A stretch of 64,000 nt of DNA, from assembly GCF_963583255.1 (NCBI RefSeq), contig NC_084817.1, forward strand, positions 17,217,989-17,281,988. The letters are read 5' to 3'. Shown here in pieces: positions 2,070-53,877 of this stretch (position 1 is its first letter; every line of letters starts with the position of its first letter). The translations under genes and the position numbers were made by a program. The notes under the pieces are model-generated. The model made no database searches. It was not told the DNA's origin and was given only the letters and a program-made list of their open reading frames with translations. Source of the DNA: Pyrus communis (taxonomy: Eukaryota > Streptophyta > Magnoliopsida > Rosales > Rosaceae).

Positions 2070-2315
2070 TACTAAATTCAAAAACTTGAATTAATAGTCT
2101 TTTCCACTCTTTTCTTTCATATCATAAGCACGAGACTCGGTTGTAAATGACGCGCACCACAAATAAGCTGCTAGAAATACACAAAAAAGAATTTTGAAAA
2201 AAAAAAAAAAGGTGGAAGGATGCAACATGAGGACTTCTCAGGAGGTCACCCATCCTAGCATTACTCTCACCTAAACTCGCTTAATTTCGGAGTTCTGATG
2301 GGATCCGATGCCAGC
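2070..2315 (-). mobile_element. Cassandra-type LTR fragment with 5S-like region
   Basis: From 2218 to about 2312 the plus strand reads as the complement of plant 5S rRNA (GGATGCAAC..., AGGAGGTCACCCATCCTAG, TTCGGAGTTCTGATGGGATCC). Upstream, 2080-2215 matches the tails of the Cassandra LTRs at 10806-11966 (the ACGCGCACCACAAATAAGCTGCTA type). The copy stops abruptly at the decayed ORF to its right. It is a transposon LTR, not an rRNA gene. Confidence 0.75.
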
Positions 2316-2327
2316 AATATCAACTTC

Positions 2328-3240
2328 CTACTCTTCATCAACAGCTGCCATATCCTGGGCAGCACTGTCATCAGCTTCCCTGACCTGGGTAGCACCACAT
2401 TCGGCTGCACATCCCTTGGCAGCCTGATCTTCAGTTGCTCCACCAATAACGTTCTCGAAGGAAAACTTAAGGAGGTCATCGGAAGAAATAGTAAAATGCT
2501 CGAGGTCCTTATCAGAAAAGACGTAGTCATACGGCATGCCAAGGAAATGATCTATATAACCAAGCTTGTAGAAGTCGGCTTGACCTTGGGCAAGGACAAC
2601 CTTAAGATTGAACTTCTCGCTCCTCAACTGCTTATTTTCCTCAACCAGGTTAGTATGAGCATTCTTCAACTCATCTAGTTCCTTTTTCAGGAGGGGTCGA
2701 CATGCACCTCCTCGGCAGTGGAATCACCATCATTGCTCTTCACCGCTGCATGTACCTCTGGAATCGGATCGAACTTGGGCACATAAGGCTATCTCGGAAC
2801 AAAACCAGACACTGCAGAACTCTTTTGCTGCACAATCCTGTCAGCAACCGTTCTTGTAACCTTCGGAACAGTAGGCTTTGCAGGGTCAGGTCTAGCAGCC
2901 TCTTTTTTCCCCTTGGAAAAAGTCAAGTCAATCACAAGCCTCCCAGCAGTGAACGAACCTTCGTGAGTAGTAGAGGAAGTCTTCGGCTTTTTCTCTATTG
3001 AAGGCTCTCAAGCAGGCGATGAAGATCTTTTTCTCCCGCCTTCACTTGCAATAGGTTTCACAATGGCAATCGGACAGGCAAACCTTCACCCTTGATCCTC
3101 CGAATCTCCTCCTACGAGGGTAGCCCATCTTTCTCCCTATGAAGAGGATTGAGCAGCCAATGTCATTCACGGTGTTCAGCAGGGATCCCCAAAGCGATGT
3201 GAATCTTCTTCATGTTCGAAGAAGACTTGGGAGTTAAACC
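2328..3240 (-). pseudogene. Decayed coiled-coil ORF, probably transposon-derived
   Basis: On the minus strand a frame at 2328-2669 reads HTNLVEENKQLRSEKFNLKV, a leucine/glutamate-rich coiled coil, followed by QGQADFYKLGYIDH and an acidic, alanine-rich tail. The same type of protein can be followed upstream to about 3000 (VIDLTFSKGKK, ADRIVQQKSS) with several stops. I do not recognise a catalytic domain. Proteins of this style are repeated in Rosaceae genomes, which suggests an accessory retroelement ORF, but this is from memory. It abuts the Cassandra fragment directly. Confidence 0.4.
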
Positions 3241-11131: not shown

Positions 11132-11244
11132 GGGATGCAACATGAGGACTTCACAAGAGTCACTCATCTTAGTACGGCTCTCACCCAAACTCAATTAACT
11201 TAGAGTTCTGATGGATTCCCGTGCAAGTGAATTGGTATGATCGC
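11132..11244 (-). repeat. 5S rRNA-like segment 1 in Cassandra LTR
   Basis: It is the complement of 5S rRNA from GGATGCAAC to GGTATGATCGCA, with substitutions such as GAGTCACTCATC for GGTCACCCATC. It is a transposon component and not expected to make functional rRNA. Confidence 0.75.
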
Positions 11245-11471
11245 ATAAGTTAACTAATGACTCGTATGTGTATATAACAATTTCTTTGGCCATTCCCCAT
11301 GACCCGCACCAAGCTAAAGTGATTAAATGAAATCCAAAACCAAAATAAATAGTCCTTTCCATTTTTCTCTTCCAACTTCCAAGCACAAGACTCAGTTGAA
11401 CATGACGCGCGTCACAAGTAAGCCGCTAAAATTATGCAAAAATAATTATGAAATATATAAAGGAGGTGGGG

Positions 11472-11588
11472 GGATGCAACACAAGGGACTTCCAAGGCGG
11501 TCACCAATCCTAGTACAACACACGGCAAAACTAACTTAACTTCCAAGTTTTGATGGGATCCATTGCATGTGAGTTGGTTAGATCGCAT
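11472..11588 (-). repeat. 5S rRNA-like segment 2 in Cassandra LTR
   Basis: Complement of 5S rRNA with small insertions (ACAAGGGACTTCC) and many substitutions. It is more diverged than segment 1. Confidence 0.7.
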
Positions 11589-11915
11589 CCATTAGTTTAT
11601 GACTCGGAATTGAACATAACGATTTCTTTGGCCAGGACTCATGACCCCATAACCTTATGCATGTGAAAATCGCCCTGGTCTTTCTTCCCACGAGAAACTT
11701 TAGATATTATTATTCAATTAATCATCCGTCATTGAATTGCAATAGCACCCGCACCGAGCCAAAACGATTAAATGAAATCCAAAAACAAAATAAGTTGGTC
11801 TTTCCATTTTTCTCTTTCAACTCCTAGGCACGAGGCTTGGTTGAAAACAATGCGCATCACAATTAAGCCGTTAAAAATACGCACAAAGAGTTATGAAAAA
11901 TAAAAAGGAGGTAAA

Positions 11916-17564: not shown

Positions 17565-18953
17565 TTACAGGGCAAAGCAACCAAGCACGGCTGCGTGAGC
17601 AGTCCCAAAAGATTCTCCGCACCAATCGTATTCAAAGATGCGAGTGGACAGGGTGTCGGCCTTGAAGGAGGAGAAATCGAATGATCTTTTTGAATCGCAG
17701 CCACCATCATTATAATTATAATCATCAGCAGCAGGACTGGTGATGGTGGTACTTGGTTTGGAGAAGGAAAACTCAAAAGTTTGAACAAGAAGACGCATCT
17801 TCCAAAGACCTATTATTTTTGGGTGCTTGATGGGATTGGAAAGAACAAAGCAGACTTTTGAACCTCCTAGATGAGCAAAGCTATAATGGCGTCGCCCCCA
17901 AAATTCACTCGGCAACCTTGGCTCCAGAATTTGGATGGGCTTAATCCAAGTTCCGGAGTCATTGGAATCGGTACTGGACAGTTGACAGGCTACTATGCCC
18001 CAATTAGAACCAGAAGCCTTATAAAGGCCGTGGTGGTGGGCGTAATAATCTTCATAATAATGATAGTTATGTTCCAGGCAGCTAGTGAAGGCTTGTACAC
18101 TAGGTGCGAAAGCGTAGGTGAACATTAGCTGACCACCAAGGAGGACCAAAGCCGTGCCATGGGAAGGAAGACGAGGAGGAGGGAGCCGTCTCCATTCTAG
18201 AGCGGGTTCAGCAACGTCGAAGAAGAAGAGCGGAGTTTCTGGGGAGGAGACCATGATCTTGGTGCCAACAACTGCATAAGAAAAGACAGGAACAAGCCAT
18301 CTGCTTCCGACGAGGGGATGATCCGGAAGAGGATTCCAACACTTGTTTCGAGAGTCGAATACCTCGCAAGCCGGAGAAGCAATGAGGGGTGCAGGAGAGC
18401 CGGCAACAGCATAGAGGTCGCCGTTGATGTCAACCAGAAAGGGGCGTGTTTTCCCTTGCTTGAATTCCCCGAGGGGGCTTATTTCGCGCTTAATGCTAGG
18501 ATTAGAGTCCTTAGTGTCAAACACATACACTTGTTTACTCGGATCTCCTGCGAATGGTCCGAATGCACTCCGTGGATTGTCTGGGGTTGGGGCCGGCAAG
18601 CCGCCGGCGAAGAGAATTTTGGAGCCAAAGACTCCGCAGCCCATCATGAAGGTCCCGTTGTGCATGGAGGCCACTTTGCGTAAGTCGGACGACTCACCAT
18701 TGGAACCGTCGGCCGCCGCACCATTGGAACCGTCGGCCGCCGCCTTTCTTCGGGTCCTTTTGGCTGCCTTGGCTTTGGCTTTGCAAGTGGGGCATCTGGG
18801 AGATTGACAGCTTGCATCAGGTTTAATCTTGCAGGAGCAATTTAAGAGATCGCTCAGTTCGATGGCGTAGATTATGTAACGGCACCTGTCACAATCCGTA
18901 TACTTGCGCTCCTCGATGCATATATACAGACGACGAGGACGAGTCTGCTCCAT
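17565..18953 (-). CDS. Kelch-like beta-propeller protein, intronless, 462 aa
   Basis: A continuous minus-strand frame runs from ATG at 18953 to TAA at 17565. The frame opens further upstream to 19052, but the ATG at MEQTRPRRLYICIEE gives the more protein-like start. Residues 1-36 (RRLYICIEERKY, YIIYAIELSDLL) form a compact strand-rich opening. Seven cysteines fall between 21 and 57, and residues 58-70 are lysine/arginine-rich. AAADGSNG is repeated at 71-86. From about residue 95, glycine-rich strands recur (FGSKILFAGGLP, VYVFDTKD, DLYAVAGSP, EVFDSRNKCWNPLPDHP, TKIMVSSPE, WRRLPPPRLP). This is the pattern of kelch or galactose-oxidase-like propellers. No F-box, signal peptide or membrane segment is seen. 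A specific role cannot be given; such proteins usually act as binding scaffolds. A strong donor-like GTAAGT overlaps the stop codon, so a further 3' exon is possible. The only other host gene supported here lies 7 kb to the right on the same strand. Confidence 0.8.
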   Translation of the reverse strand: MEQTRPRRLYICIEERKYTDCDRCRYIIYAIELSDLLNCSCKIKPDASCQSPRCPTCKAKAKAAKRTRRKAAADGSNGAAADGSNGESSDLRKVASMHNGTFMMGCGVFGSKILFAGGLPAPTPDNPRSAFGPFAGDPSKQVYVFDTKDSNPSIKREISPLGEFKQGKTRPFLVDINGDLYAVAGSPAPLIASPACEVFDSRNKCWNPLPDHPLVGSRWLVPVFSYAVVGTKIMVSSPETPLFFFDVAEPALEWRRLPPPRLPSHGTALVLLGGQLMFTYAFAPSVQAFTSCLEHNYHYYEDYYAHHHGLYKASGSNWGIVACQLSSTDSNDSGTWIKPIQILEPRLPSEFWGRRHYSFAHLGGSKVCFVLSNPIKHPKIIGLWKMRLLVQTFEFSFSKPSTTITSPAADDYNYNDGGCDSKRSFDFSSFKADTLSTRIFEYDWCGESFGTAHAAVLGCFAL

Positions 18954-20236
18954 CTGTCCTCCTGATCTCAACTGCAGCTCTTGGGTTTTTCCTCTTTCTG
19001 GGTTTGTGAGAAAATTCAAATAAGGATGTCCCCTTGAACAAATAACACACACACTGATTCATAAATCTCTAACTCTCTTTTCCAAATAACACGCACTGAT
19101 TCAAAACAGGGAATATAAAATGCACATCCTTATACGTTTGTAACTCTCTTTTTCAACATCCAAAATAGGGTATTCTAAATCTGTTTTTCATTCATTTCTC
19201 ACAAACCAATCATACATTTAAAATAGGCTTTGAATAAAAATAGGGCATATAATTATACACCTCAATATGCCTAAGAACCAACTTTTCTCCTCCAACGATT
19301 CAAATTCCTAAATATCCCAAAAATAGTAAATCCATTAGTACTATATAAATGAAAACGCAATTGAAATCCATCGAACAAAACAATTCCACAATTTAAACGA
19401 TTCAATCCTACTACAAATGAAATTCACGGAGAGAATGAAAAACCAGAACAACAAAATCTGTAGCACCTAAAAAGTTGTCATACAATATGTCAAGAAATCT
19501 AGTTCGTTAATTTCCCACTGCTATGGGGGTTGCACTTTTATTCCAATTGATAAGGAAAGGAAATTGAAAATCAACCCCTTCGTCTTAGTTGTGGCTGCAA
19601 AGTGCAGGCCACCACCAAGTCTCAGTGTTTTAGCAAAACACTTAAATAATTAATTTCTGAAATGTAAAATATTTTCCTATAACTTTAAGATGCCCATATA
19701 GTATTATCAAAGTCGAATGCCTGATTAATTTTGGAGTTGATATTTAAAGTTCCCATTTAATTTGTATTGGAAGTATTGTTAGACTATGAGTACGAAGATA
19801 ACATTGCGGCCAGATATATTGTGTGAATTTTGCTATGGAAAAGTCTTGTCAATAAGCTTAGAGGAATTCTATTTCTTGTAGGATTATGAGTACTGAAAGT
19901 AATCCAATATATGGAGGATTGAACTCGGTACTGTGACTCTTAAGTCACTCCAACTTTAATGTGTATTGCTTGTTTGAGTTCCAAAAGGATTCTAATAGGA
20001 GAATGTTTGGAATAGTTCTACATAAAACCTTAGCCACTAGTCTGCAAAGGTCTGCTCGATTTAGTTCCAATTATATACCTATTGTTGGGAGAGTGCTTAG
20101 ATTGATATAAAAACATAAAACTAGACAAATTTTTATTCCCATTTAGTCCCATTCTGATGAATGTGGTTGAAACCATGGCTAAAAACCAAGCTCCAATACA
20201 TTCTCTTCAAAGATAACTTCTCAATCAATACAAAGA
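18954..20236. other. Upstream flank of the kelch-like gene, no gene
   Basis: AT-rich, with no frame of interest. A near-duplicate of ATAACACACACACTGATTCA occurs at about 19040 and 19088. A precise TATA box could not be assigned. Confidence 0.45.
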
Positions 20237-23560: not shown

Positions 23561-25482
23561 CACCTAAAAAATAAGCATGTAACAGTGCCACACCCTATTG
23601 ATAACGCAATGTTATAGTATTAAAGACCAACACTATAACACTATATTACCAATAAAATGTAAGGCTACTTGAGAGGAATACAGTAAAATATTTATTTTTA
23701 TGCAGTACGGAAGCGAAAATTATTTTGGTAAATCAAAGAATAAAAGGGCAACGGGATTTGAATAACATTTTTACATCAAGGACAAAGTTCACAACTTACA
23801 ACAAAACCGAAACTTGAAGGTAATCAACATACTAAACCAACTCTTTAGTACGATTAGGAAAATACAAAGCATTGAGTTTGGCTACAAAAGATCCCTTCAA
23901 GACAGTAACGAAATAAGAAATATGTACTGACAAAAACATGTGAAAAGAGTCAATAAACGACTGAGAAGTTTGAGAGATTTTAATGGATTTATAAATTCAT
24001 GGATTTTTATGAAGTTTAACTGATTTGTAGAGATTCCATGTAAAATTTTGATTCAATTCCCTCGAAATCTCATGGGAAGAGGTGAGATTTGTGGATGCTT
24101 AAAATACACTACAAAATCTCTCCAATTCCCTCTAATTCCTCAACTTTTCCAAATTCTTTAATTAAAGAGAAAATTAGAATTAGATGCCTCATTTTAGACT
24201 TTTGTAGACTAAACATTTATGCTTTTTGAGTTTTTTATTAAGCTTTTGAAACATTTGATTAAGATACTCAGACTTGAACTACATCAGATTAATTGAAATT
24301 AATTTACATTTAAATATATGCTATATATTTTAAATAATTTCAACTATATTTAAGTCTAAAAATTTAAACTTTTCAAATCTAAATGTACACCCACGCCAAA
24401 TGGAAACTTACCAACATTAAATGAAAACCTACCAACGTCAAACGAAAATGTACCAACACCAAATTAAAACATACCCAATTATAAACTATATTAAAATGAA
24501 TATTCATCTTTTTGGAATGTTTAAAAATATGTTTGATTCATACACAATGCTTTAGATAGTCTTGTTTTTTGGTAAATAAGTCTCTGGAACAACTTTTAGT
24601 TGATCAGAGATAAATCCTTATTATTGTAGATAATACTAAATAATAACGATAAATCATATAATTTTGAATTAACAAAAAGGCTACTGTTAGTTGATTAATA
24701 ACTCTTTCTATAAAAAAAATAATAATTAATTAGTAATTTAAACTTTTACAGTGTTAAAGACTCTTTCCATAAAAAAATATATATATATTTAATTAAAGTA
24801 ATTCCTCATTATTAGGACAAAAAGTAATAAAACTTATGTTTTAAAAACAAATGTACCAAAAATTCAAATGTACCAAAAACTAAATGTATCAAAAATTCAA
24901 ATGTACCAAGAAGTCAAATGGACCAAAAATTCAAATGTACTAAGTAACTAAATGTACCGTTACAATCAAACGTACCAATATAACCAAACGTACCTAACAA
25001 CGAGAATCGTACATTCTATTTAATTTACTCAAATAAATATTTAATAAAAAAAAATCTTAAATCATCATAATAAGAGATACATAAAAATATGAGCAAAAAA
25101 GAGAATGCTAACGTGAATAGACTTCTAATGAAATAAAATTAAAGTACCAAAATTGTAGGGAAAATGTTTAATCAAATTTGCAAAAGGAATAAATGCTTAG
25201 TCTATGACTTTTAAAAATGAGACGTTTATATCAAAACGTCCCTTCTTTACATTCTAATTCTAATTGAATGCACCTAGAATGTTATAAACTTGTTTAAAAT
25301 TCTAATTGAATACACCCGGATTTCTAAGGATTTTAATAAACTATCTTAAAATCTTGATTGAATACACATTGAATTTCAGATAATCACTTAAAATCCAGAT
25401 TGAATATCCATGGATTCATTAAAAGAATTAAAATCTCTCAAAATCTCAATTGAATACATCCCCTAAATGTCATTTGTAATAT
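23561..25482. repeat. AT-rich decayed element with minisatellite patches
   Basis: A patch at about 24390-24475 repeats the CCAACnnnAAAnGAAAAnnTA type (about 19 bp). Another at about 24845-24995 repeats AAAAATTCAAATGTACC-like units of 16-19 bp. The outer parts (23960-24110 and 25250-25465) are loosely inverted relative to each other (GAGAGATTTTAAT...CATGGAT / ATCCATGG...ATTAAAATCTCTC). This suggests a non-autonomous DNA transposon about 1.5 kb long with a damaged left end. No gene was seen. Confidence 0.45.
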
Positions 25483-25930
25483 CTAATCTAATTTACCCCC
25501 ACTTCCAACATCAAATCCTATGTTCCATCTGTAATCGACTGCCACATTACACGGCGTCAATGCAAGAACAATCTGGTAAATACTAGAAGAAGAGCTTTGT
25601 ACCAAAAAATTTGTAACTGATTGCACAGCCGTACCCTCATTTGATCCAAGTGAAATGAGATCAACGCATCGCATGCAACACCTTCATTTTGTTTTCCCAC
25701 ACATGGCGAGAGCCATCACCTAATCCTACTAGAATCAAGTAAATAATAAGAACGGAAACAAAACTATAAGGGAAACTAAATTAAAATAGCCCTTGTTCAT
25801 TCTGCACCAACATGCCTTCTAGTTTCGAACTTGAATATTCGTGAATAGAACTTCTAACAAAACAAGTGATTACTTGTAAATAAATAAAAAATCTAATAAA
25901 TATATAAAATCCACTATTTCCTTTACGAAC
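25483..25930 (-). other. Candidate 3' region of the RPC31 gene, last exon unresolved
   Basis: The RPC31 family ends in a short acidic tail after the SDD/DYY stretch encoded by exon 6. In this interval the only related reading is NIGFDVGSGGKLD ending at a TAG at 25483, preceded by TTACAG. The phase does not fit the exon 6 donor, and the acidic residues are mostly gone. The last exon may be elsewhere, mutated or lost. Confidence 0.3.
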
Positions 25931-26568
25931 CTTATAATAATCATAATCATCACTAAGGTCGTCGTCCTCTGGTTCCTCCTCCTCTTCATTTTCATCTTCA
26001 TCCTCACCTTCACCTTCTTTCTTTTCTTTTGCATCATTTTGGCCCTACAAAGGAGAAACGTTATCAACAAAAAAAGTTAATGCATACAAAAATTAAACTA
26101 CCAATGACAAGACAAAATCTTTAAACCACAAATAATAGATTCTTTTCATGGACAAATTTACAGTGATCTTTGACTCAAAGTATTGTAGTTACAGACACTC
26201 TAAAGACTTTCTCATACCTGACGCTGCTCGAGCTTTTCAAATAAATCCAACTTCTCCAGCCCTGTCAGAGTGATATTCTTAATCAGTTAGATTCAAAATA
26301 CCTACAGAACAAAGAAAACCGCAGAAACATATGATATAAGACGGCACAAAAAAGAAAGCATCTAATCTCATAGGACCTGAGTTAGGATTCCATCGAACTC
26401 TTCTTCGACCTGGCTGCTGCAACCTTGAACCTGAAATACCATTGCATCAGCATGCATGCAAAAACCAAAAGGGCAGCCATAAAATACGATTATTCAGATT
26501 AGAAACCTTCCGTCAGTTCTTGAGGAAATCCCTTGAGCTCCAATATACTAAAAAGAGAACCACGCCTT

Positions 26569-27020
26569 TGTTGGTATTTTACAGTTTACTAACTCAATAC
26601 CAAAATATGTGGGTGATAAGTTTACAAACTCTATCACACCTCTTTCACTTTGCACTCTCAAATAAAATTGGACAAAGAAAGAAATAGAGAAAGGAGGGAA
26701 GCAACAAGCTTTGGCAAAACACTTGGACTTTGATATATGAAAAAGGTTTACAAACTGTTGGAATAAGAAAGCTTACAAGCTTCTTCACAATTGGAAGTGG
26801 GATTCGGATGGGATGATTTACAATGCTTGAGAACTTGGGTATTTATAGCAAACCAAATGATTAAACTAAGATTATTTATTACCACACAAAACACATTAAT
26901 TGCACCTAATAATTTTTATTCAACCATACCTAACATTGCCTAACTTTCCATGCCTAACTTTGACATTGATTTTCAACAATAGCTAGCAGCAACATCCTGT
27001 TTTGATTTGAATTTCCAACA
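26569..27020 (-). repeat. 3' LTR of the Copia element
   Basis: 452 bp, TGTTGG...CCAACA. It carries a CTATAAATA box (complement of 26840-26848). It is identical to the other LTR except for one transition. Confidence 0.97.
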
Positions 27021-27032
27021 CACCTCCTCAAA
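27021..27032 (-). promoter_or_regulatory. Polypurine tract of the Copia element
   Basis: On the minus strand the bases just before the 3' LTR read TTTGAGGAGGTG, directly after the pol stop codon. This is the position and composition expected for the plus-strand primer. Confidence 0.8.
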
Positions 27033-30000
27033 TCAAAACGCCTTCATTCCTAGCATTTCACGCAGTAGCCGGAATGTTTCAATTGGCAATGGCTTTGTGA
27101 AGATGTCTGCCACTTGTTCCTTGGTGTGACAGTAGACAAGTTCAATTGTCTTTTGCTTCACATGGTCCCTTAGAAAATGGAACCTGGTATCAATGTGCTT
27201 GCTCCTTCCATGTTGAACAGGATTCTTTGCAAGTTTGATTGCAGACACGTTATCTACATGAATCACAGTCGATTCCACTTGTGGATGACACACTGACTTC
27301 AACAGATTTCTTAACCAAATTGCCTCACACACGGTTGAGGCTACAACAACATACTCGGCTTCACATGATGACAAAGCAACAATTGATTGCTTCTTTGAAG
27401 TCCATGAGAAAGCTGTTGATCCTAGAAAAAACACATAGCCAGTTGTGCTTTTCCTTTCATCTTGGTCACCTCCCCAATCACTATCTGAATAACCAAATAA
27501 TTTTGCATCTTCACCAAAATTATAAAATAGACCATAGTTTAGAGTACCTCTTATGTACCTCAAAATTCTCTTGGCGGCCAGCCAATGAGACTCCCTTGGT
27601 GTTTCCATGTATCGACTCACGAGTCCAACACCATAAACTATATCAGGTCTTGTGATTGTAAGGTACCTTAGGCTTCCAACGAGGCTTTTGTACACTGTTG
27701 AGTTTACAAACTCACCCTCTCCTCCTTTGGACAGCTTCAATCCAGTTGCGACTGGGGTATTGACAGTGTTGCACTTGTCCATATTGAACTTCTTCAATAT
27801 GTCTCTCATGTACCTTTGTTGAGAGATGTAGATACCATCACTTTCTTGCTTCACTTCTATGCCAAGAAAGTATGACATTAATCCATTGTCAGTCATCTCG
27901 AATTCACTGAACATGGATTGCTTGAACTCATGGAACATTGCCTCATTGTGTCCTGTAAACAATAAATCATCTACATAGAGACAAATAATTAAGAACTCCC
28001 CTTTTTCACCATTCTTCATGTAAACTGAATGCTCGTATGGACATTTCTGAAATCCATTTTGGTGAAGGTAGTTGTCGATCCTTGAGTTCCAAGCTCGTGG
28101 TGCTTGCTTGAGGCCGTACAAAGCCTTCTTCAAACAATACACCTTATCTTCTTCTCCTTGTACTTGGAAGCCTTCCGGTTGTTCCACGTACACTTCTTCC
28201 TCAAGTACTCCATTAAGGAAGGCTGACTTGACATCTAGTTGATAAATTTTCCATTTATGATGTGCGGCAAGAGAGATTAGCAATCTTACCGTGTCAAGTC
28301 TCGCAACTGGAGCATAGACTTCATCATAGTCCACTTCATACTTCTGTTTGTAGCCCTTTGCTACAAGCCTTGATTTGTATCGATCCACACTCCCATCTGC
28401 AGTGCGTTTGATCTTGTAAACCCACTTGACACCAATAGCCTTCTGATTTGGTGGGAGCTTTGTCAGCTCCCAAGTGTCATTCTTCTCGATGGCATGGATC
28501 TCTTCTTCCATGGCTTTCTTCCAACAATCTTCTTCCACAGCTTCATTGAATGAGAAAGGCTCGTGGTCTGCATACAAGCAGAAAAGGTTGGTTTCTTCTT
28601 TTTCTTCTTGTCCATAAATCTCTGTGAGACTCCTTAACCTCACTGGAGTTGAGGAGCTGCTTTCCTCACTGGATGTAGGACCACTCCTTGCAATTCTGTG
28701 CACTGGAGTTGTTGTGATTGTTTGAGCAGGCTGTTGCTCAATCGGTGGTACAACTTCTGGTTCTTCAAAATCAGTGGAGACGATCTTCTCTTTACTGACT
28801 TCTTTGTTGTTCCACGTCCATGTCTCTTCCTCACTGAAGATGACATCTCTACTAACCACTAGTTTGCCAGTTAGTGGGTTGTAGAGCTTGTATGTCTTGG
28901 ACTCTTCACTATAGCCCACAAACACACACTTCTCACCTCTATCATCAAGTTTCCTCCTCTTGGCTTCTGGAACTTGAGCATATGCAACACACCTAAAAAT
29001 TCTTAGGTGTGTAACATTCGGCTTGTATCCACTCCACGCCTCTTGTGGTGTCATCCTCTTGACACTCTTTGTTGGACATCGATTCAACAAATAAATCGAA
29101 CAAGCTACAGCTTCTGCCCATAACTCTTTTGGAAAATTCTTCTCCTTAAGCATGGACCTTGTCATGTCAAGGATGGTTCGATTCTTTCTTTCGGCTATCC
29201 CATTTTGCTGTGGGGTATAGGCAGCAGTAAGTTGATGCCTAATTCCTTGCTCCTTGCAGTATGCTTGGAAAGCATTGGAGGTGTACTCTCCACCTCTATC
29301 TGATCTCACAGCCACAAGCTTGTGGTTACTTTCTGCCTCTGTGAGTGCCTTGAACTCCTTGAAAATTTTTAGAGCAGCTGACTTCTCCTTGAGAAAATAG
29401 ACCCAAGTCTTTCTACTGAAATCATCAATGAAGGTAATAAAATACCTATTACCTCCATAAGACATGGGATCCAATGGACCACATATATCTGTGTGCACCA
29501 ACTGCAGTGGTGCCTTTGCTCTCCATGTATCACCAACAGGGAACGATAGTCGTGCTTGCTTGCCAAGCACACAACCTTCACATACTTGGCGTGTGGCTTC
29601 AATCTGGGGTAGACCACGAACCATTCCTCCACTTGACAGCAACTTTAGGCCATTGAAATTAAGATGGCCAAATCGAAGATGCCATTTCCATGACTCATCT
29701 TCCATTACACCGATGTTGCAGCTTCCAATCTTTGTGTTCAAATTCAACGGAAACATCCGGTTCTTTGACATTCGAACACGTGCAATAAGCTTTCTCCTTG
29801 CATTCCTGAGAGTGAGAAGCATGTTCTCCATATGTATAATGTACCCTTTCTGGAGCAGTTGACCAATGCTCAGAATGTTGCTCTTCATACCTGGTATGTA
29901 GTAGGTATCGGAGATGTATTCTTCTCTTCCATCCTTCTGGATGATCTTGATCTTCCCTTTGCCTTCAACTGGCAACTTTGAGGAGTCACCAAGACTTACA

Positions 30001-30578
30001 GATCCATAGGCCCCTTTTTTGAGTTCGGCAAAAGACTCCTTCTTTCCACACATGTGATTGCTTGCACCAGAGTCCAAATACCAAACATCTTGTTGGCTAC
30101 TGGAATCATGGTGTGCTAGTAAGACTGTAAGTTCTTCATCAGTATTTCCACTTGATTCTGCCATGTTGACATGCTCACCATTTTTATGTGAACATTCATT
30201 GGCATAATGTCCATATTGCTTACAGTTGTGACACTGGATTTGCGCTTTTCCTCGAGTAGATCTCCACTCCTGAGACTGACCTTGATTTTGTGCATAGCCT
30301 CGACCTCTTCCTCGGGCTCGTCCTCGGCTACGGTTGGATGAGCTCCCACGACGTGAGTTCCACTGCCCACGACCTTTATTTGGTTTGTCAATATTCAACT
30401 TTGACTCCAAAGCTTGCTCTAGCGTTGTGGGGCTTGCATTCTTCTGAATGCGTTGCTCGTGAACTAGGAGGGATCCTAGTAGCTCTTCTGTGCTCATCAC
30501 CTCCAAATCCTTGGATTCCTCAATGGCAGTCACCACATGCTCAAACTTAGATGTGAGTGACCGGAGTATCTTCTCCAC
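27033..30578 (-). CDS. Copia gag C-terminus and pol polyprotein
   Basis: A long minus-strand frame (1181 codons counted from a GTG at 30578; the true upstream start is in gag). In order it shows an arginine/glycine-rich linker, a CCHC knuckle [14 protein letters not shown] (about 116-129), the aspartic protease motif [10 protein letters not shown] (D169), and the integrase HHCC finger (H300, H305, C333, C336). The integrase catalytic triad follows (D364 in HTDICGP, D427 in RSDRGGEY, E463 in NGIAERKN). The reverse transcriptase has D782 and YVDD at 868-871, and RNase H has D1032 in GYSDSDWGG and the SSCEAEY motif. The frame ends at TGA 27033, just before the purine tract. All catalytic residues I can check are present, so the enzyme part looks undamaged. 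It is separated from the gag start by one TGA. Confidence 0.95.
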
Positions 30579-30581
30579 AAC

Positions 30582-31055
30582 TCATACTTCATCGAGTCTC
30601 TCGCCATTTCTCCTCATCTGATTTACTATCACAATGAGCCTTGAGTGATAGTCGGAGATGCTCTCCCCTTCATTCATATGAGCAGTTTCAAAATCTGCTC
30701 GAAGTGATTGTAACCTCACTTTCTTGACTCGATCTACTCCTTTGTAGATTGTACTGAGTGTATCCCATACTTGCTTGCTCGTTGTTGCTTCTGCAACCTT
30801 CTCGAACGTTGAATCTTCCAAACCCTGGTATAGAAGATACAGCGCCTTTTGGTCCTTCTTTCGTAAGTCCTTGAGAGTGTTCCTTTGATCCGCAGTATAT
30901 ACGGCTTCTTGCTCGGCAGTGGGTACAACATACCCACTACTGACAACTTCCCATAGCTCCTGTGATCCAAACAATGCTTTGAATTGGATGCACCATCTTT
31001 CATAATTTTCTTTCTTCAATGTGGGAACTTGGAGTTGCACTAAGTTGGACGCCAT
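30582..31055 (-). CDS. Copia gag N-terminal part, ended by an in-frame TGA
   Basis: It starts MASNLVQLQVPTLKKENYER, with the W-x-I/F-x-F-KALFGSQELWEVV pattern of the Copia gag (UBN2/DUF4219 type). It ends ...RNGERLDEV at a TGA (30582-30584). The next frame is in the same phase and carries on with the usual [14 protein letters not shown] of the same domain. The TGA therefore lies inside gag and is not a natural gag-pol boundary. The change is consistent with one C-to-T transition at a CG site. Readthrough is possible but not shown. Confidence 0.9.
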   Translation of the reverse strand: MASNLVQLQVPTLKKENYERWCIQFKALFGSQELWEVVSSGYVVPTAEQEAVYTADQRNTLKDLRKKDQKALYLLYQGLEDSTFEKVAEATTSKQVWDTLSTIYKGVDRVKKVRLQSLRADFETAHMNEGESISDYHSRLIVIVNQMRRNGERLDEV

Positions 31056-31085
31056 AACTGCTGCACCTGCCAGAATGGTATTCTG

Positions 31086-31097
31086 GCTCTGATACCA
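31086..31097 (-). promoter_or_regulatory. Copia primer binding site (tRNA-iMet)
   Basis: The minus strand reads TGGTATCAGAGC two bases inside the 5' LTR. This is the standard complement of the 3' end of plant initiator methionine tRNA. Confidence 0.93.
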
Positions 31098-31099
31098 AT

Positions 31100-31551
31100 T
31101 GTTGGTATTTTACAGTTTACTAACTCAATACCAAAATATGTGGGTGATAAGTTTACAAACTCTATCACACCTCTTTCACTTTGCACTCTCAAATAAAATT
31201 GGACAAAGAAAGAAATAGAGAAAGGAGGGAAGCAACAAGCTTTGGCAAAACACTTGGACTTTGATATATGAAAAAGGTTTACAAACTGTTGGAATAAGAA
31301 AGCTTACAAGCTTCTTCACAATTGGAAGTGGGATTCGGATGGGATGATTTACAATGCTTGAGAACTTGGGTATTTATAGCAAACCAAATGATTAAACTAA
31401 GATTATTTATTACCACACAAAACACATTAATTGCACCTAATAATTTTTATTCAACCATACCTAACATTGCCTAACTTTCCATACCTAACTTTGACATTGA
31501 TTTTCAACAATAGCTAGCAGCAACATCCTGTTTTGATTTGAATTTCCAACA
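31100..31551 (-). repeat. 5' LTR of the Copia element
   Basis: 452 bp. The promoter TATA-like CTATAAATA is at the complement of 31371-31379. Transcription would run leftward through gag-pol in the same direction as the RPC31 gene. Confidence 0.95.
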
Positions 31552-32513
31552 GCCTTATCGTGGTTTTTGGCTTTGATCTGTCAGAATATCTTTCTACCTC
31601 TGCGTTTTGCCTCTCTGCAACCACATGTTCAAGAAGTGTATTATTATCAAACATAATCTTGTATAATTTCAAAGAAGCCAAAAAATAATTAAGAATCGAA
31701 TCAGAAGCAATATGGTATTCGAATAAAATGCCAGTATGGACCAATATTTTTAATGAACTGACAAGTTTAAGCAAAAACAAAAGTGTAACATGCACATGTT
31801 GAATATAATACAACTATATAAAAAATCAGCTTAAAAAAATACTTATATTTTGAACAAGAATTAGTAGCATGCAACAAATATCCTTTTGAGAAAAAAGAAA
31901 GTTTGAAATTATTGTGATTTATGAATCTGCTTCGATTAAACATTTGACGTGTCACTTTGCATAATGGCCACAAACAGAAGAAAATGTGTTGTCTTTGGAA
32001 GGGGCGTGTGAACTTCTACTTGCATCTAACTATAAAACCTGAGTGAGATCGATTTCAGATACACTATACTTGTGTATTTTCATCTTCAACCATATCCATA
32101 TCATTTGATTGTTTTTTAAGATTAAGGCTTATCAACATATCTGTGTGAATTTCATCGGAACTGCGAAACAAGCATCTATGCAGCATTGCTAGTCTATTAT
32201 CGAGTTCAAACATACCAGAACAACAAAAATGCTCTCCAAAACATCAAATCAATAAGGAGAGTCTTTCCCCACCGAGAAAAAGAAAGGGAAAAACACATGC
32301 TCCATAGATTGCTTATTCCACTACCATGTGTACTGCTAAATAAAAAATGACAATGAATTATGAAGAATATCATGCTAACCATTCGAAGTGCTCTGCTCAA
32401 GATAATAAGGAGAGTCTTTCCAAATTTTTTGAAACTTGCGAGTTTGGTTGATTGAGTTTTCTTCCTCAGTAACAGCGTCTGTTTTTTGATGTGGCAAATC
32501 AATGTCCTGCAAA

Positions 32514-32567
32514 GTAAAGTTTCGACGTTAAATATGAAAAGTAAAGTTTCGACGTTAAATATGAAAA
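32514..32567. repeat. 27-bp tandem duplication in RPC31 intron 1
   Basis: The unit AGTAAAGTTTCGACGTTAAA plus TATGAAA is present twice in a row without mismatch. It lies 8 bp inside the acceptor side of intron 1 and does not touch the splice sites. Confidence 0.85.
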
Positions 32568-32802
32568 GTAGGAACAGAGTCAGCCCATAAATTGTCTATT
32601 TCTAGTTCATGGAAACCTAGCAAACAGCCAAACTTACGCAAAACTGCAGCAACAAAAACTCACAGGAAAAAGCACAAAGGGTTCTTGCTTAGCATACCCA
32701 AAACCGCCACCACCCGAAAATCCACCGCGTCCACGCCCTCTATATGCCATTGAACTACACATTTAAACGCAAAGAGGAATTACTCAATAAACACTCATAT
32801 GC

Positions 32803-36128: not shown

Positions 36129-37309
36129 GGGTAATACACTTTCATACCTTAGGTTTGGGGTCTATTTCAATTCCTTACAACATCTTCAAAATATTTCACT
36201 TTCATACCTTAATACTATTTTATTTCAAAATAATACATTCGTTACATTTTCCAACCATTGATCCGTTAAGTGCTGAACTGACTGCCACATATATGTCACG
36301 TGGCAAAAAAAATGATTTTTTAGTTTCTTTTTAAAAAACCTGAATTTTCTCAAAAATAAAATAAAAAAAATTTGAAACCCATCCCTAAACCTACACCCCC
36401 TACGTCCCTAAACCCGCAAGAAGAAGAAGAAGAAGGAGCAGGAGGAGAAAAAAAAATAGTGCTTGAACCTCCCCCCCCCCCCCCCCCAACAACCTCCCAC
36501 CCCCGCACAACGCACCTACCTTCCATCTCCCCCCCCTAACGCGAACCCACCCAGACCATGACCTCCATATTTTTGAGATTTTTAGTGTGGGTAAGTTTCG
36601 AAAATACTTTGAGATGGGGAGTTTGAGTTTGAGATGATTGTTGGATTGGTTTTGTGGTAGATCCACCTAATCTCGGATGAGATTTTTGGGGGTTGGTGAT
36701 GGGGGATTTTTGGGAGGGGTGATGGGTTTTTTTTTTTTTTTTTTTTCTTTTCCTCCTCTTCTTCTTCTTCTTCTTTTTCTTCTTCTTCTAGGTTGTAGGT
36801 TTTTGGGGGTGGGGGACGAACTGGGTTTGGCCTTTTTTTTCTTCTCTCTTTCTTCTTCTTCTTCGTCTTGTTATTGTTGTTGCAGGTTTAGGGATGTGGG
36901 GGTGGTTGCGGGGAGATGGGATGGGATGGGTTTCAATTTTTTTTTTCTTTTTCCTCCCTCTTCTTCTTCTTCTTCTTCTTCTTCTTCTTCTTCTTCTTGC
37001 ATGTTTAGGGATGTAGGGGTTGCAGGTTTAGGGATGGGTCTCAAATTTTTTTTTTTTTTTTTTAAGAAAATTCAAGTTTTTTAAAAAGAAAATAAATAAA
37101 AAAAATTTGCCATGTGGCAGACATTTGGCAGCCACGTGGCATATATATGGCAGCCACATCAGCACTTAATGGATCAATGGATGAAAAATGTAACGGAGGT
37201 ATTATTTTGAAATAAAATAGTACTAAAGGTATGAAAGTGAAATGTTTTGAAGATGTTGTATGTAATTGAAATAGACCCCAAACCTGAGGTATGAAAGTGT
37301 AATTTACCC
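36129..37309. mobile_element. Mutator-like element with long TIRs and 9-bp TSD
   Basis: The ends are GGGTAATACACTTTCATACC and its inverted counterpart, ending ...TTTACCC. The arms pair over roughly 300 bp (36129-36437 against about 36960-37309). They include the paired CACGTGGC / GCCACGTGGC block and the paired ATGGATCAATGG region. ATGAAAAAA stands outside both ends (36120-36128 and 37310-37318). Long TIRs plus a 9-bp duplication indicate the Mutator superfamily. The interior has no transposase, only C/G runs and TTC repeats. Confidence 0.9.
36438..36998. repeat. Low-complexity MULE interior, repeated TTC/GGTTTAGGGATG blocks
   Basis: Three to four degenerate blocks of about 110 bp each combine a T run, (TTC)n, and a G-rich stretch like GGTTTAGGGATGTGGGGG. 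The inner end of the TIR has the same composition, so the interior looks like tandem amplification of TIR-inner sequence. A C run of about 17 lies near 36471-36487. The overlapping 88- and 135-residue frames are artefacts. Confidence 0.6.
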
Positions 37310-40083: not shown

Positions 40084-40224
40084 TCAAATATATGCTATGT
40101 CAAGTATCCCAGTATGGAAATAAGTAGCCAGGTGAAATAAATCAATGTAAAATGATGTGTCAGCTGGAGTCACCTAACGTGACCTACACGGCTGAACCTA
40201 TAACTCATCAAATATGCTGACACA
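40084..40224. repeat. 141-bp flanking duplication, left copy
   Basis: It begins TCAAATATATGCTATG and ends AATATGCTGACACA. It is the same as 49392-49532 except for one T/C difference (CAGCTGGAG against CAGCCGGAG). It belongs to the solo LTR, not to the inserted element. Confidence 0.95.
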
Positions 40225-48181: not shown

Positions 48182-49282
48182 TCATCCTTGATTGTAAGTA
48201 TTGGAGAAAGGATCACCCCTTGGTTGGTTTTGATTCCCATAACCCACGGCATTGGCAGATTCCCACCCTCCATTCTCAATCGATTGAGGGCATTGATCAG
48301 ATTGGTGTCCTTGAATGGAGCATACGCCACAAATTGTAGCTCCTTGCGCTTTGGGGCCTTCAACAAACTGCGACAACATAGACATAAGGTTAGCCATTTG
48401 GGATTGTAACTCGGAAATAAAACTTACCTCATTTACATGCTGTGGTCGTGGGGTGTCTCTCTGCCCAACACCTTCATATTGTTGTGCATTGAGTGCTCGA
48501 TTAGCAATGAGAGTTTTGGCATCCCTAGGTGTCTTGTCCACTAGAGCTCCTCCCGCGGATGCATCCAACATTTGCCGTTCAAGTGGTAAAAGACCTTCGT
48601 AGAAATATTGAAGGAGAAGCTCCTCCTTCATTTGATGTTGAGGACATGATGCAACAAGGGCTTTAAAACGCTCGTAGTATGCCGGAAAAGATTCTCCTTG
48701 GCTTTGTTGGATTCCGCTAATTTTCTTCCTCAAAAGAATGACTCTTGAAGTAGGGAAGAACTTCTCCAAGAACGCTCTATTCATGCTCTCCCAAGAAGTA
48801 ACGGTCCCGGGTGCCAATTCATAAAGCCAATCTTTAGCCTTTTCCATAAGAGAAAATGGAAAAGCTTTCATCTTCAAAATATTCCCATCAACATTAATGG
48901 GTGTCATGCTTGAGCATACAACTTTAAACTCCTTCAAATGCTTGTTTGGATCTTCCATGGACAACCCATGGTACTTGGGAATATGATGCAGCAAGCTTGA
49001 CTTCAATTCGAACTTATCGGTCTTACCTTGGGCCGCCCTAGGATATTGAATGCATAATGGCATGGCATTATCTAATCCCGAAGCAGAAAGCTCCTTGATT
49101 GTTCGATTCTCCACCGCCATGACTTGTTCTTCTTCCTCCACTTCTTCAAATTCAGAAACGGACTCGGAACTTGCACTTGATTCACTAGGTTCCGGGTTCT
49201 TCCTCTTACGTCTCAACTCACGCTCAAAATCGTCGTCAAAGTCTAAAATATGTTCATGAACCGGATTAGAACTCCGAGTCAT
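48182..49282 (-). pseudogene. Gypsy gag, N-terminal and CCHC part
   Basis: ATG at 49282 opens MTRSSNPVHEHILDFDDDFE. It continues through the retrotransposon gag domain (AKDWLYELAPGTVTSWESMN, RAFLEKFFPTSR, QGESFPAYYERFKALVASCP, LLQYFYEGL) and a CCHC knuckle CGVCSIQGHQSDQC. TGA at 48182-48184 falls where relatives have a tryptophan codon, so a single G-to-A change is likely. Otherwise the domain is complete. Confidence 0.85.
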
Positions 49283-49376
49283 AAACAAGTACCTAAAACA
49301 AGAAACAAAATAACATAAGAATCTGATCTAATAAGAAAACGAAAATAACAATCCAAAGGATTAGCAAAGTTGATAA

Positions 49377-49394
49377 TCCCCGGCAACGGCGTCA
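49377..49394 (-). promoter_or_regulatory. Gypsy primer binding site (tRNA-Asp type) at the insertion edge
   Basis: The plus strand reads TCCCCGGCAACGGCGTCA, matching the 3' end of tRNA-Asp (…CGGCGCCA) except for one base in the terminal triplet. The last bases overlap the start of the 141-bp flank copy (TCA), so the element ends exactly at its primer site. Confidence 0.85.
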
Positions 49395-49532
49395 AATATA
49401 TGCTATGTCAAGTATCCCAGTATGGAAATAAGTAGCCAGGTGAAATAAATCAATGTAAAATGATGTGTCAGCCGGAGTCACCTAACGTGACCTACACGGC
49501 TGAACCTATAACTCATCAAATATGCTGACACA
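49392..49532. repeat. 141-bp flanking duplication, right copy
   Basis: Same as 40084-40224 with one mismatch. It is followed by CAAGTACGATT, the continuation of the solo LTR. Confidence 0.95.
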
Positions 49533-52972: not shown

Positions 52973-53877
52973 AACCATCTTCAACTGAAGGAGGACTAGA
53001 TGGTTCATTTTAACCTTATAACTCTTCAAGAATTTAATATTTTAATAAACAGTATCAAGCCATATTTCTTAGCGTCTCCAACCGAGGGGCCAGAGGGCCA
53101 CAAGCCAAACATAACCCTGTAACAAAAAATCATCTTCAACCGAGGGGACCAAAGGATCATAGGTCAAACATAATTTATTATTTTAATTTAAATACTACAA
53201 CAACTTAAATTTAAAGTCTATAATCATATAATCATCTTCATCATCATCATCCGTCATTGTAGGATTATAATCAAAGGTAAGGCCATCTTCAACCGAAAGG
53301 TTCAGAGGGCCGAAAATAGCCTGAAAACCGTCTCTAACTGAGGGTTAGGCCTGAGGGCTCGTGGAATTTTAGAGGGCCATCTGAAAGGGCTAGAGGGCTG
53401 GCAAGAAAAATCATTATTCATGTCGATTATAACTGACATGAATCCTAATCTAAAATTCAAATGCAACGGCTAGCTGACGTCAGCTAGCCGTTGCATTTGA
53501 ATTATTATTATTTTTTTTTTTTAGGTTTTTTGGGCCTTTTTTTTTAATTCTCAAAAATTCTAATTTTTTTTTCCTATAAATACCTAAATCATTGATTCAC
53601 CATTCCTTTAAATTTAATTTGTAGTTTTTAAATTTAATTCGTCGTTTTTAAATATAAACTGTAGTTTTTAAATTTAAATAATAAATTATGTTTGGCCCTT
53701 TGGCCCTCGGTTGGAGATGGTTTTTTGTGACAGGGCTAAAACAAGCTCTATGACCCTTTGACCCTCGGTTGGAGACAAAGGCAAATATGGCCATGTACTG
53801 TTCATTAAAATATTAATATCTTGGAGGGCCAGAGGGCTAAAATAAGCCCTCTGGCCAGCCCTCGGTTGGAGATGGCC
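52973..53877. mobile_element. Harbinger-like element X, long TIRs, TAA at both ends
   Basis: The left arm 52973-53215 (ACCATCTTCAACTGAAG ... GTCTCCAACCGAGG ... CAAACATAATTTATTATTT) pairs with the right arm 53655-53877 (AATAAATTATGTTTGGCC ... CTCGGTTGGAGATGGCC). TAA lies next to each end (52970-52972, 53878-53880), as in PIF/Harbinger elements. The interval overlaps element Y rather than nesting in it. Confidence 0.65.
53454..53503. repeat. 50-bp perfect palindrome
   Basis: The arm AATTCAAATGCAACGGCTAG plus CTGAC is mirrored without mismatch around GAC|GTC, with no spacer. The corresponding region of the opposite TIR (about 54845-54890) keeps an imperfect version (GGCTAACTGACGTCAGCTAGCC). Confidence 0.95.

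What the first reader, a model, noticed from the sequence alone, without database searches (positions are those of the whole stretch)
25931..32750. Young Copia retrotransposon sits inside a coding exon of an RNA polymerase III subunit gene
The six RPC31 exons can be rebuilt with matching phases only if 26569-31551 plus one GCCTT is removed. The two halves of exon 3 then add up to exactly 120 bp and keep the phase (1 to 1). The insertion is in the protein-coding part, and reading into the LTR stops after about a dozen codons. LTRs differing at one of 452 sites imply a very recent event, of the order of 0.1 million years with a commonly used plant rate. Either a second functional copy exists (likely after a whole-genome duplication) or this is a segregating null allele of a subunit that is normally needed for growth.
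Basis: partly seen in the sequence, partly recalled or inferred. Interest (0 to 1): 0.88.

Follow-up and report, generated by a model that had tools for sequence, protein, structure and literature searches.

The report
Young retrotransposon in duplicated RPC31 gene
In an apple- or pear-related plant, a recently inserted jumping gene interrupts one of what are probably several copies of a gene for an RNA polymerase III subunit; that copy also seems to have lost its last coding exon, so this looks like an ordinary spare copy breaking down rather than loss of an essential gene.

Summary
A Ty1/copia element (26569-31551, minus strand) has 452-bp LTRs with one mismatch and a perfect 5-bp duplication (GCCTT). 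It lies in exon 3 of an RPC31/RPC7 gene on the same strand. Without the insert and one GCCTT, exon 3 is 120 bp, phase 1 to 1, and six exons encode 182 aa, 93% identical to a pear protein named rpc31-like. Reading into the LTR stops after 12 codons.

The interpretation needs three corrections. (1) Apple and pear proteins form three RPC31 clades; the window falls in the one with P0001 (pear) and P0101 (apple). (2) The last coding exon, with acidic tail and stop, was not recognised in the window, and intron-6 similarity ends at 25685, so the element is probably not the only lesion. (3) Exon 3 is symmetric: skipping it keeps the frame but removes a conserved block.

Most likely a spare duplicate is becoming a pseudogene. 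A nearly identical unbroken relative of the element exists (P0122). The window's own genome could not be searched, so working copies there are inferred. Ordinary; interest low.

The parts
32664..32750 (-). RPC31 exon 1, 87 bp, ATG start
   Evidence: identical to P0001 residues 1-29
32380..32506 (-). RPC31 exon 2, 127 bp, ends in phase 1
   Evidence: 97.6% to P0001 residues 30-71
31557..31614 (-). RPC31 exon 3, first part (58 bp)
31552..31556 (-). Target-site duplication copy GCCTT (plus-strand letters)
31100..31551 (-). 5' LTR in sense orientation, TG...CA, 452 bp
   Evidence: TATAAA at LTR position 174 and AATAAA at 101 and 141 in sense orientation
31086..31097 (-). Primer-binding site TGGTATCAGAGC just inside the 5' LTR (initiator-Met tRNA type, name recalled)
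30582..31055 (-). gag N-terminal ORF, 157 aa, ended by an in-frame TGA at 30582-30584
   Evidence: PF14223 E=5.9e-26
27033..30578 (-). gag C-terminal part plus pol ORF, 1181 aa, same frame, uninterrupted: zinc knuckle (just below cut-off), GAG-pre-integrase, integrase, RVT_2
   Evidence: its five pieces are 98.5-99.6% to P0122
26569..27020 (-). 3' LTR in sense orientation, 452 bp, one difference from the other LTR
26564..26568 (-). Target-site duplication copy GCCTT (plus-strand letters), counted as exon 3 sequence
26507..26568 (-). RPC31 exon 3, second part (62 bp); exon total 120 bp, phase 1 to 1
26377..26430 (-). RPC31 exon 4, 54 bp
   Evidence: degenerate scan score 52.6, next best printed 11.6
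26218..26261 (-). RPC31 exon 5, 44 bp
   Evidence: tblastn E=1.3e-5
25931..26044 (-). RPC31 exon 6, 114 bp, first acidic stretch; followed by GTTCG, a possible donor whose acceptor was not identified
   Evidence: tblastn E=2e-21
25685..25705 (-). End of recognisable intron 6 (HVWENKM, shared with the Malus models P0003 and P0082, which read through it); similarity stops at 25685
   Evidence: E 0.11 and 0.16; P0003 tail score 29.4, highest of 40 shuffles 23.0 and of 40 window stretches 20.4
25555..25684 (-). Probable RPC31 3' flank joined straight to intron 6, suggesting deletion of the last coding exon (inferred)
   Evidence: set against the negative tests

Best explanation
This is one member of a small RPC31 (RPC7-type) gene family in a plant of the apple tribe (Maleae, genus undetermined). 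A Ty1/copia element inserted into exon 3 in the sense direction, probably within the last few hundred thousand years. Transcripts that enter the 5' LTR meet a stop after 12 codons and may end at LTR poly(A) signals, so no normal subunit can be made unless the element or the exon is spliced out. The same copy appears to have lost its last coding exon with the acidic tail and stop codon, most simply by a small deletion. The plant most likely lives on one or both of the other RPC31 copies, so this is a spare duplicate turning into a pseudogene. Shown: element, exon, frame, family, related clades in apple and pear, and no recognised last exon in the window. Inferred: the order of the two lesions, the small deletion, the presence of the other copies in this genome, and loss of function.
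For: LTRs, duplication and empty-site frame. Family by Pfam, with weak support from solved RPC7 chains. Tree of 20 rows: window, P0001 (pear) and P0101 (apple) form one clade (97/98); P0002, P0003, P0011, P0082 and P0091 a second (99/97); P0004 and P0012 a third (100/99). P0002 and P0004 carry the full acidic tail. Last exon: four versions by tblastn (six best hits each printed) and three by degenerate scan (four best each printed) gave no convincing place downstream, while the exon 5 and 6 and exon 4 and 5 controls were found. Intron-6 similarity stops at 25685. The next 80 nt fit the Prunus tail NLPHFSSTKWS better than all 600 control stretches, and the next 130 nt fit a pear clade-C tail better than all 150. 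The six pieces of the element's ORFs are 98.5-99.6% identical to an unbroken 1340-aa relative.
Against: The window's own genome could not be searched, so no other copy was seen there. Exons 1-6 look clean: the window's tree branch is 0, which fits a copy kept until recently and not a long-dead one. The small-deletion reading is mixed: over a 532-nt region the Prunus tails P0007 and P0070 scored no better than shuffles (22.0 against a highest of 26.9; 21.0 against 23.3), the clade-B apple tail did not match (72 of 150 controls as good), and the short peptides were picked after seeing the match by eye, so their counts flatter it. One weak 11-residue match to the last exon lies downstream at 17694-17726 (E=0.11, inside the DUF1668 ORF). 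The last exon could also lie beyond the window edge or be missing through an assembly error.
Confidence: 0.77

Rival explanations
1. The insertion is a segregating null allele of a copy that is still needed; the other haplotype has the empty site with a complete last exon.
For: LTRs almost identical; exons 1-6 well conserved, window branch 0. The acidic tail of yeast Rpc31 is important for viability and human Rpc7-beta is essential for cell growth (PMC10201443, passages).
Against: Full-length related copies in apple and pear; two genes in Arabidopsis (PMC8583208, passages); a probable second lesion in the same copy. The apple clade-A protein P0101 is only a 112-aa model with a branch of 0.17, which hints that the clade is dispensable there.
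Confidence: 0.12
2. The copy still makes protein: exon 3 is skipped with the element inside it, giving an in-frame shortened subunit.
For: Exon 3 is 120 bp, phase 1 to 1; skipping leaves a 142-aa open frame to the end of exon 6. The Malus baccata model P0011 lacks exactly the 40 residues of exon 3. Seven in-frame donor/acceptor pairings around the element exist on paper.
Against: Exon 3 carries the stretch aligned with the yeast conserved block (FPNEL in yeast, FPQEL here, weak alignment), where mutations impair yeast growth (PMC10201443, passages). P0011 is a gene model, not a transcript. The donor that keeps all of the first part of exon 3 (GCT|GTTGGA) looks weak by eye; no splice scoring was run. 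The last exon was not found either.
Confidence: 0.06
3. The insertion is real, but the missing last exon is an assembly error, or the exon lies more than 25 kb away behind other transposons.
For: The window holds other transposon remains and repeats; the genome and reads were not available.
Against: Short-range tests suggest that the gene's own 3' flank follows directly after intron 6.
Confidence: 0.05

Closest known systems
RPC31/RPC7 subunit of RNA polymerase III (Pfam PF11705; yeast Rpc31, human Rpc7-alpha/beta, Arabidopsis AT4G01590 and AT4G35685)
   Same: Pfam match above cut-off, Gly/Arg-rich start, ERYSD...FPQEL stretch, acidic stretch in exon 6
   Different: Coding sequence cut by a 4,983-bp element; last acidic exon not found
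Ty1/copia LTR retrotransposons of Rosaceae (TGTT and AACA families, Copia/Ale; PMC5659011, abstract and passages)
   Same: About 5 kb, short target duplication, gag then integrase then reverse transcriptase, very young copies
   Different: Normal TG...CA ends and 452-bp LTRs, against TG...TT ends and 152-184 bp in the seven TGTT table rows seen; AACA rows were not seen; lineage of this element not determined
RAC copia element in the soybean Rhg1 alpha-SNAP gene (PMC6712407, abstract and outline)
   Same: A copia element inside a plant gene
   Different: RAC is in intron 1 and antisense, and no overt effect on mRNA or protein was detected; here the element is in a coding exon and in sense

Membership tests
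RPC31/RPC7 | Pfam PF11705 above gathering score | tested here: met
   42 bits, cut-off 30.2
RPC31/RPC7 | Sequence relation to solved RPC7 chains | tested here: inconclusive
   Single-sequence search found no RPC7 chain. A profile of 14 sequences put yeast RPC7 first (6eu0_Q E=0.0036, 7z0h_Q E=0.0049), but unrelated EZH2 chains at E=0.032 came before human RPC7 7a6h_Q at E=0.25
RPC31/RPC7 | Complete reading frame to the acidic tail and stop | tested here: not met
   Interrupted in exon 3; last exon not recognised in the window
RPC31/RPC7 | Assembly into Pol III with Rpc82 and Rpc34 | not testable with these tools
   none
Ty1/copia LTR retrotransposon | LTR pair with TG...CA ends and target duplication | tested here: met
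Ty1/copia LTR retrotransposon | Integrase before reverse transcriptase | tested here: met
   rve at 355-456, RVT_2 at 700-943 of the 1181-aa ORF
Ty1/copia LTR retrotransposon | Unbroken gag-pol | tested here: not met
   One in-frame TGA in gag at 30582-30584; an unbroken relative exists
Ty1/copia LTR retrotransposon | RNase H domain | tested here: inconclusive
   No Pfam hit listed; the C-terminal piece (231 aa) aligns over its full length to P0122
TGTT/AACA Rosaceae subfamilies | Non-palindromic LTR ends TG..TT or AA..CA | tested here: not met
   LTR ends are TG...CA

The most novel reading that the evidence does not exclude
The disrupted copy is still expressed and gives an exon-3-skipped Pol III subunit without the conserved block and with a changed tail, acting as a variant or interfering subunit.
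Probability: 0.04. Interest if true: 0.55.

Novelty: new member of a known kind. Interest (0 to 1): 0.2.

Why it matters
It is a clean, datable example of a probable duplicate of a housekeeping gene being disabled by a young retrotransposon that has a nearly identical unbroken relative. The insertion could serve as a presence/absence marker. If the copy were still needed or expressed it would matter for how plants handle Pol III subunit dosage, but nothing here points strongly that way.

Tried and rejected
TGTT/AACA Rosaceae copia subfamily: rejected, because the ends are TG...CA, and the LTRs are longer than in the TGTT rows seen.

NRPC7 mutant paper PMC4809280 (passages): a naming trap. Its NRPC7 (At1g06790) is the Rpc25 orthologue, not RPC31, so its lethality data do not apply.

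A 66-aa open stretch downstream of 25685 was tested as a protein: no Pfam family.

Species identification through the DUF1668 ORF: best of 6 hits is Malus baccata, 86% over 41% of the query, so the genus stays open.

Insertion of another transposon at 25685: a search with 25480-25695 against the window gave, besides itself, only matches of 12-18 nt.

Literature: searches (RPC31 with retrotransposon insertion, 10 of 62 listed; Rpc31 in Arabidopsis, 1 paper; copia exon insertions with apple, 12 of 245 listed; RPC31/RPC7 with Malus/Pyrus/Rosaceae, 8 of 6,701 listed, none of the eight containing rpc31 or rpc7; 1 paper) showed no report of this insertion in the listings. These searches are narrow and the listings were capped.
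Full report
The element. Two 452-bp repeats at 26569-27020 and 31100-31551 differ at one site, begin TG and end CA, and are flanked by GCCTT on both sides. The primer-binding motif TGGTATCAGAGC lies just inside the right-hand LTR on the minus strand. Two minus-strand ORFs in one frame, 157 and 1181 aa, are separated by a single TGA at 30582-30584. Pfam shows copia-type gag, GAG-pre-integrase, integrase, then RVT_2, the Ty1/copia order. The RT part matched 7,804 proteins (7,967 candidates scored, 120 listed), and P0122 is 99% identical there. Six pieces of the two ORFs are 98.5-99.6% identical to P0122, an unbroken 1340-aa protein. So this copy has a broken gag, but an unbroken close relative exists.

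The age. One difference in 452 sites gives about 85,000 years at 1.3e-8 per site per year, the rate used in PMC5659011 (passages), with a 95% Poisson range of 2,000 to 474,000 years. With two slower rates chosen by me it is 158,000 years (7e-9) and 277,000 years (4e-9; range 7,000 to 1.5 million). A copying error at insertion could also explain the single difference.

The gene. Joining the flanks with one GCCTT restores a 120-bp exon, phase 1 to 1, and six exons give 182 aa. The protein matches PF11705. A search found 127 proteins at E<=0.001 among 380 candidates (120 listed), the best being P0001 of Pyrus ussuriensis x P. communis, named rpc31-like, 93% identical over the whole query. In an alignment with 13 of these, the insertion point falls inside TTIR|RGSLF with no gap in P0001. 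A single-sequence search of solved structures gave no RPC7 chain. A profile of 14 sequences did, weakly: yeast RPC7 chains first at E=0.0036 and 0.0049, then unrelated EZH2 chains at 0.032, and human RPC7 at 0.25. It aligned ERYSD...FPNEL of yeast with ERYSD...FPQEL of exon 3. In PMC10201443 (passages) the yeast conserved block is residues 122-136; the passage links it to contact with a winged-helix domain of the Rpc82-type subunit (Rpc3) in human structures and reports growth defects for mutations from residue 123 on.

Probably not a single-copy gene. A tree of 20 rows (19 of the 127 relatives plus the window) puts the window with P0001 and the apple fragment P0101 (97/98), apart from an apple clade B (99/97) and an apple/pear clade C (100/99); the fork joining A and B is weaker (85/79). 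P0002 (B) and P0004 (C) are full length with the acidic end. Arabidopsis has two genes for C31 (PMC8583208, passages). That the window's own genome has the other copies is inferred, because its assembly could not be searched in 11 attempts (listed in Tried and rejected).

A second lesion. P0001 continues after exon 6 with HSDFDDDEDEYNMEDDGDDEPLL. tblastn with four versions of this end found no convincing match downstream among the six best hits printed for each. The best were E=0.017 at 53216-53248, upstream of the gene, and a weak 11-residue match at 17694-17726, E=0.11. The exon 5 and exon 6 controls gave E=1.3e-5 and 2e-21. An ungapped degenerate-DNA scan with the first 18 residues of three versions had best scores of 17.3-19.1, either upstream of the gene or inside exon 6, against 45.3 and 52.6 for the exon 5 and exon 4 controls. 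Two Malus models (P0003, P0082) read through intron 6 and show HVWENKM before the last exon. The window matches this at 25705-25685 and then departs (P0003 tail score 29.4 against at most 23.0 in 40 shuffles).

The sequence that follows resembles translated 3' tails of relatives, with mixed results. Three near-identical Prunus tails each had 1 of 150 control stretches as good. NLPHFSSTKWS had 0 of 600, SETVLHMR 15 of 1,000, SETVLHTR 26 of 1,000, a pear clade-C tail 0 of 150, and an apple clade-B tail 72 of 150. The short peptides were picked after the match had been seen by eye, so those counts are flattering. Over a wider 532-nt region two Prunus tails were no better than shuffles. The favoured reading is a small deletion of the last coding exon. 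That the exon was not recognised in the window is the firmer statement.

Mechanism. Transcription from the RPC31 promoter enters the sense-oriented 5' LTR. Translation adds 12 residues and stops; the LTR also has AATAAA motifs. Skipping exon 3 would leave an open 142-aa frame to the end of exon 6, and a Malus baccata model, P0011, lacks exactly exon 3, but the product would miss the conserved block. Seven in-frame donor/acceptor pairings around the element exist on paper; none was scored or tested.

Verdict. The dramatic half of the interpretation, loss of an essential subunit, is unlikely; the spare-copy half is favoured, with the added point that this copy seems to be broken twice. Copia insertions within plant genes are known (for example PMC6712407, abstract; and the rose KSN allele with a 9-kb copia insertion, PMC7848002, abstract start in the listing), so interest is low.

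Noticed in passing
window 2217-2328, 11132-11248, 11471-11590 (minus): Three 5S rRNA-like matches (Rfam RF00001, 51.5-61.8 bits), two of them within a short tandem repeat. They could be Cassandra-type elements or 5S relics; the box pattern printed in PMC7215508 (passages) was not found.
   Followed up: partly
window 40084-40224 and 49392-49532: A 141-bp direct repeat, 99% identical, 9.3 kb apart, flanking a Retrotrans_gag ORF (48182-49288); the repeat starts TC and ends CA, so it is not a standard TG...CA LTR pair as bounded here.
   Followed up: partly
window 36129-37309: Inverted-repeat element of about 1.2 kb with arms 83% alike.
   Followed up: no
window 17565-19052 (minus): 495-aa open frame with DUF1668 (one relative is named F-box/kelch-repeat, another F-box), best hit Malus baccata 86% over 41% of the query.
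   Followed up: partly
P0001 (pear), around residue 130: The pear clade-A model has an extra EYHSDR at the exon 4/5 junction, as if an upstream acceptor were used; together with the short apple model P0101 this hints at decay of clade A in other species.
   Followed up: no
literature, PMC4809280 and PMC8583208: The name NRPC7 is used for the Rpc25 orthologue in one paper and for the C31 orthologues in the other, and the second writes of a partial loss of function of NRPC7 with defects like those of the first paper's mutant (passages).
   Followed up: partly
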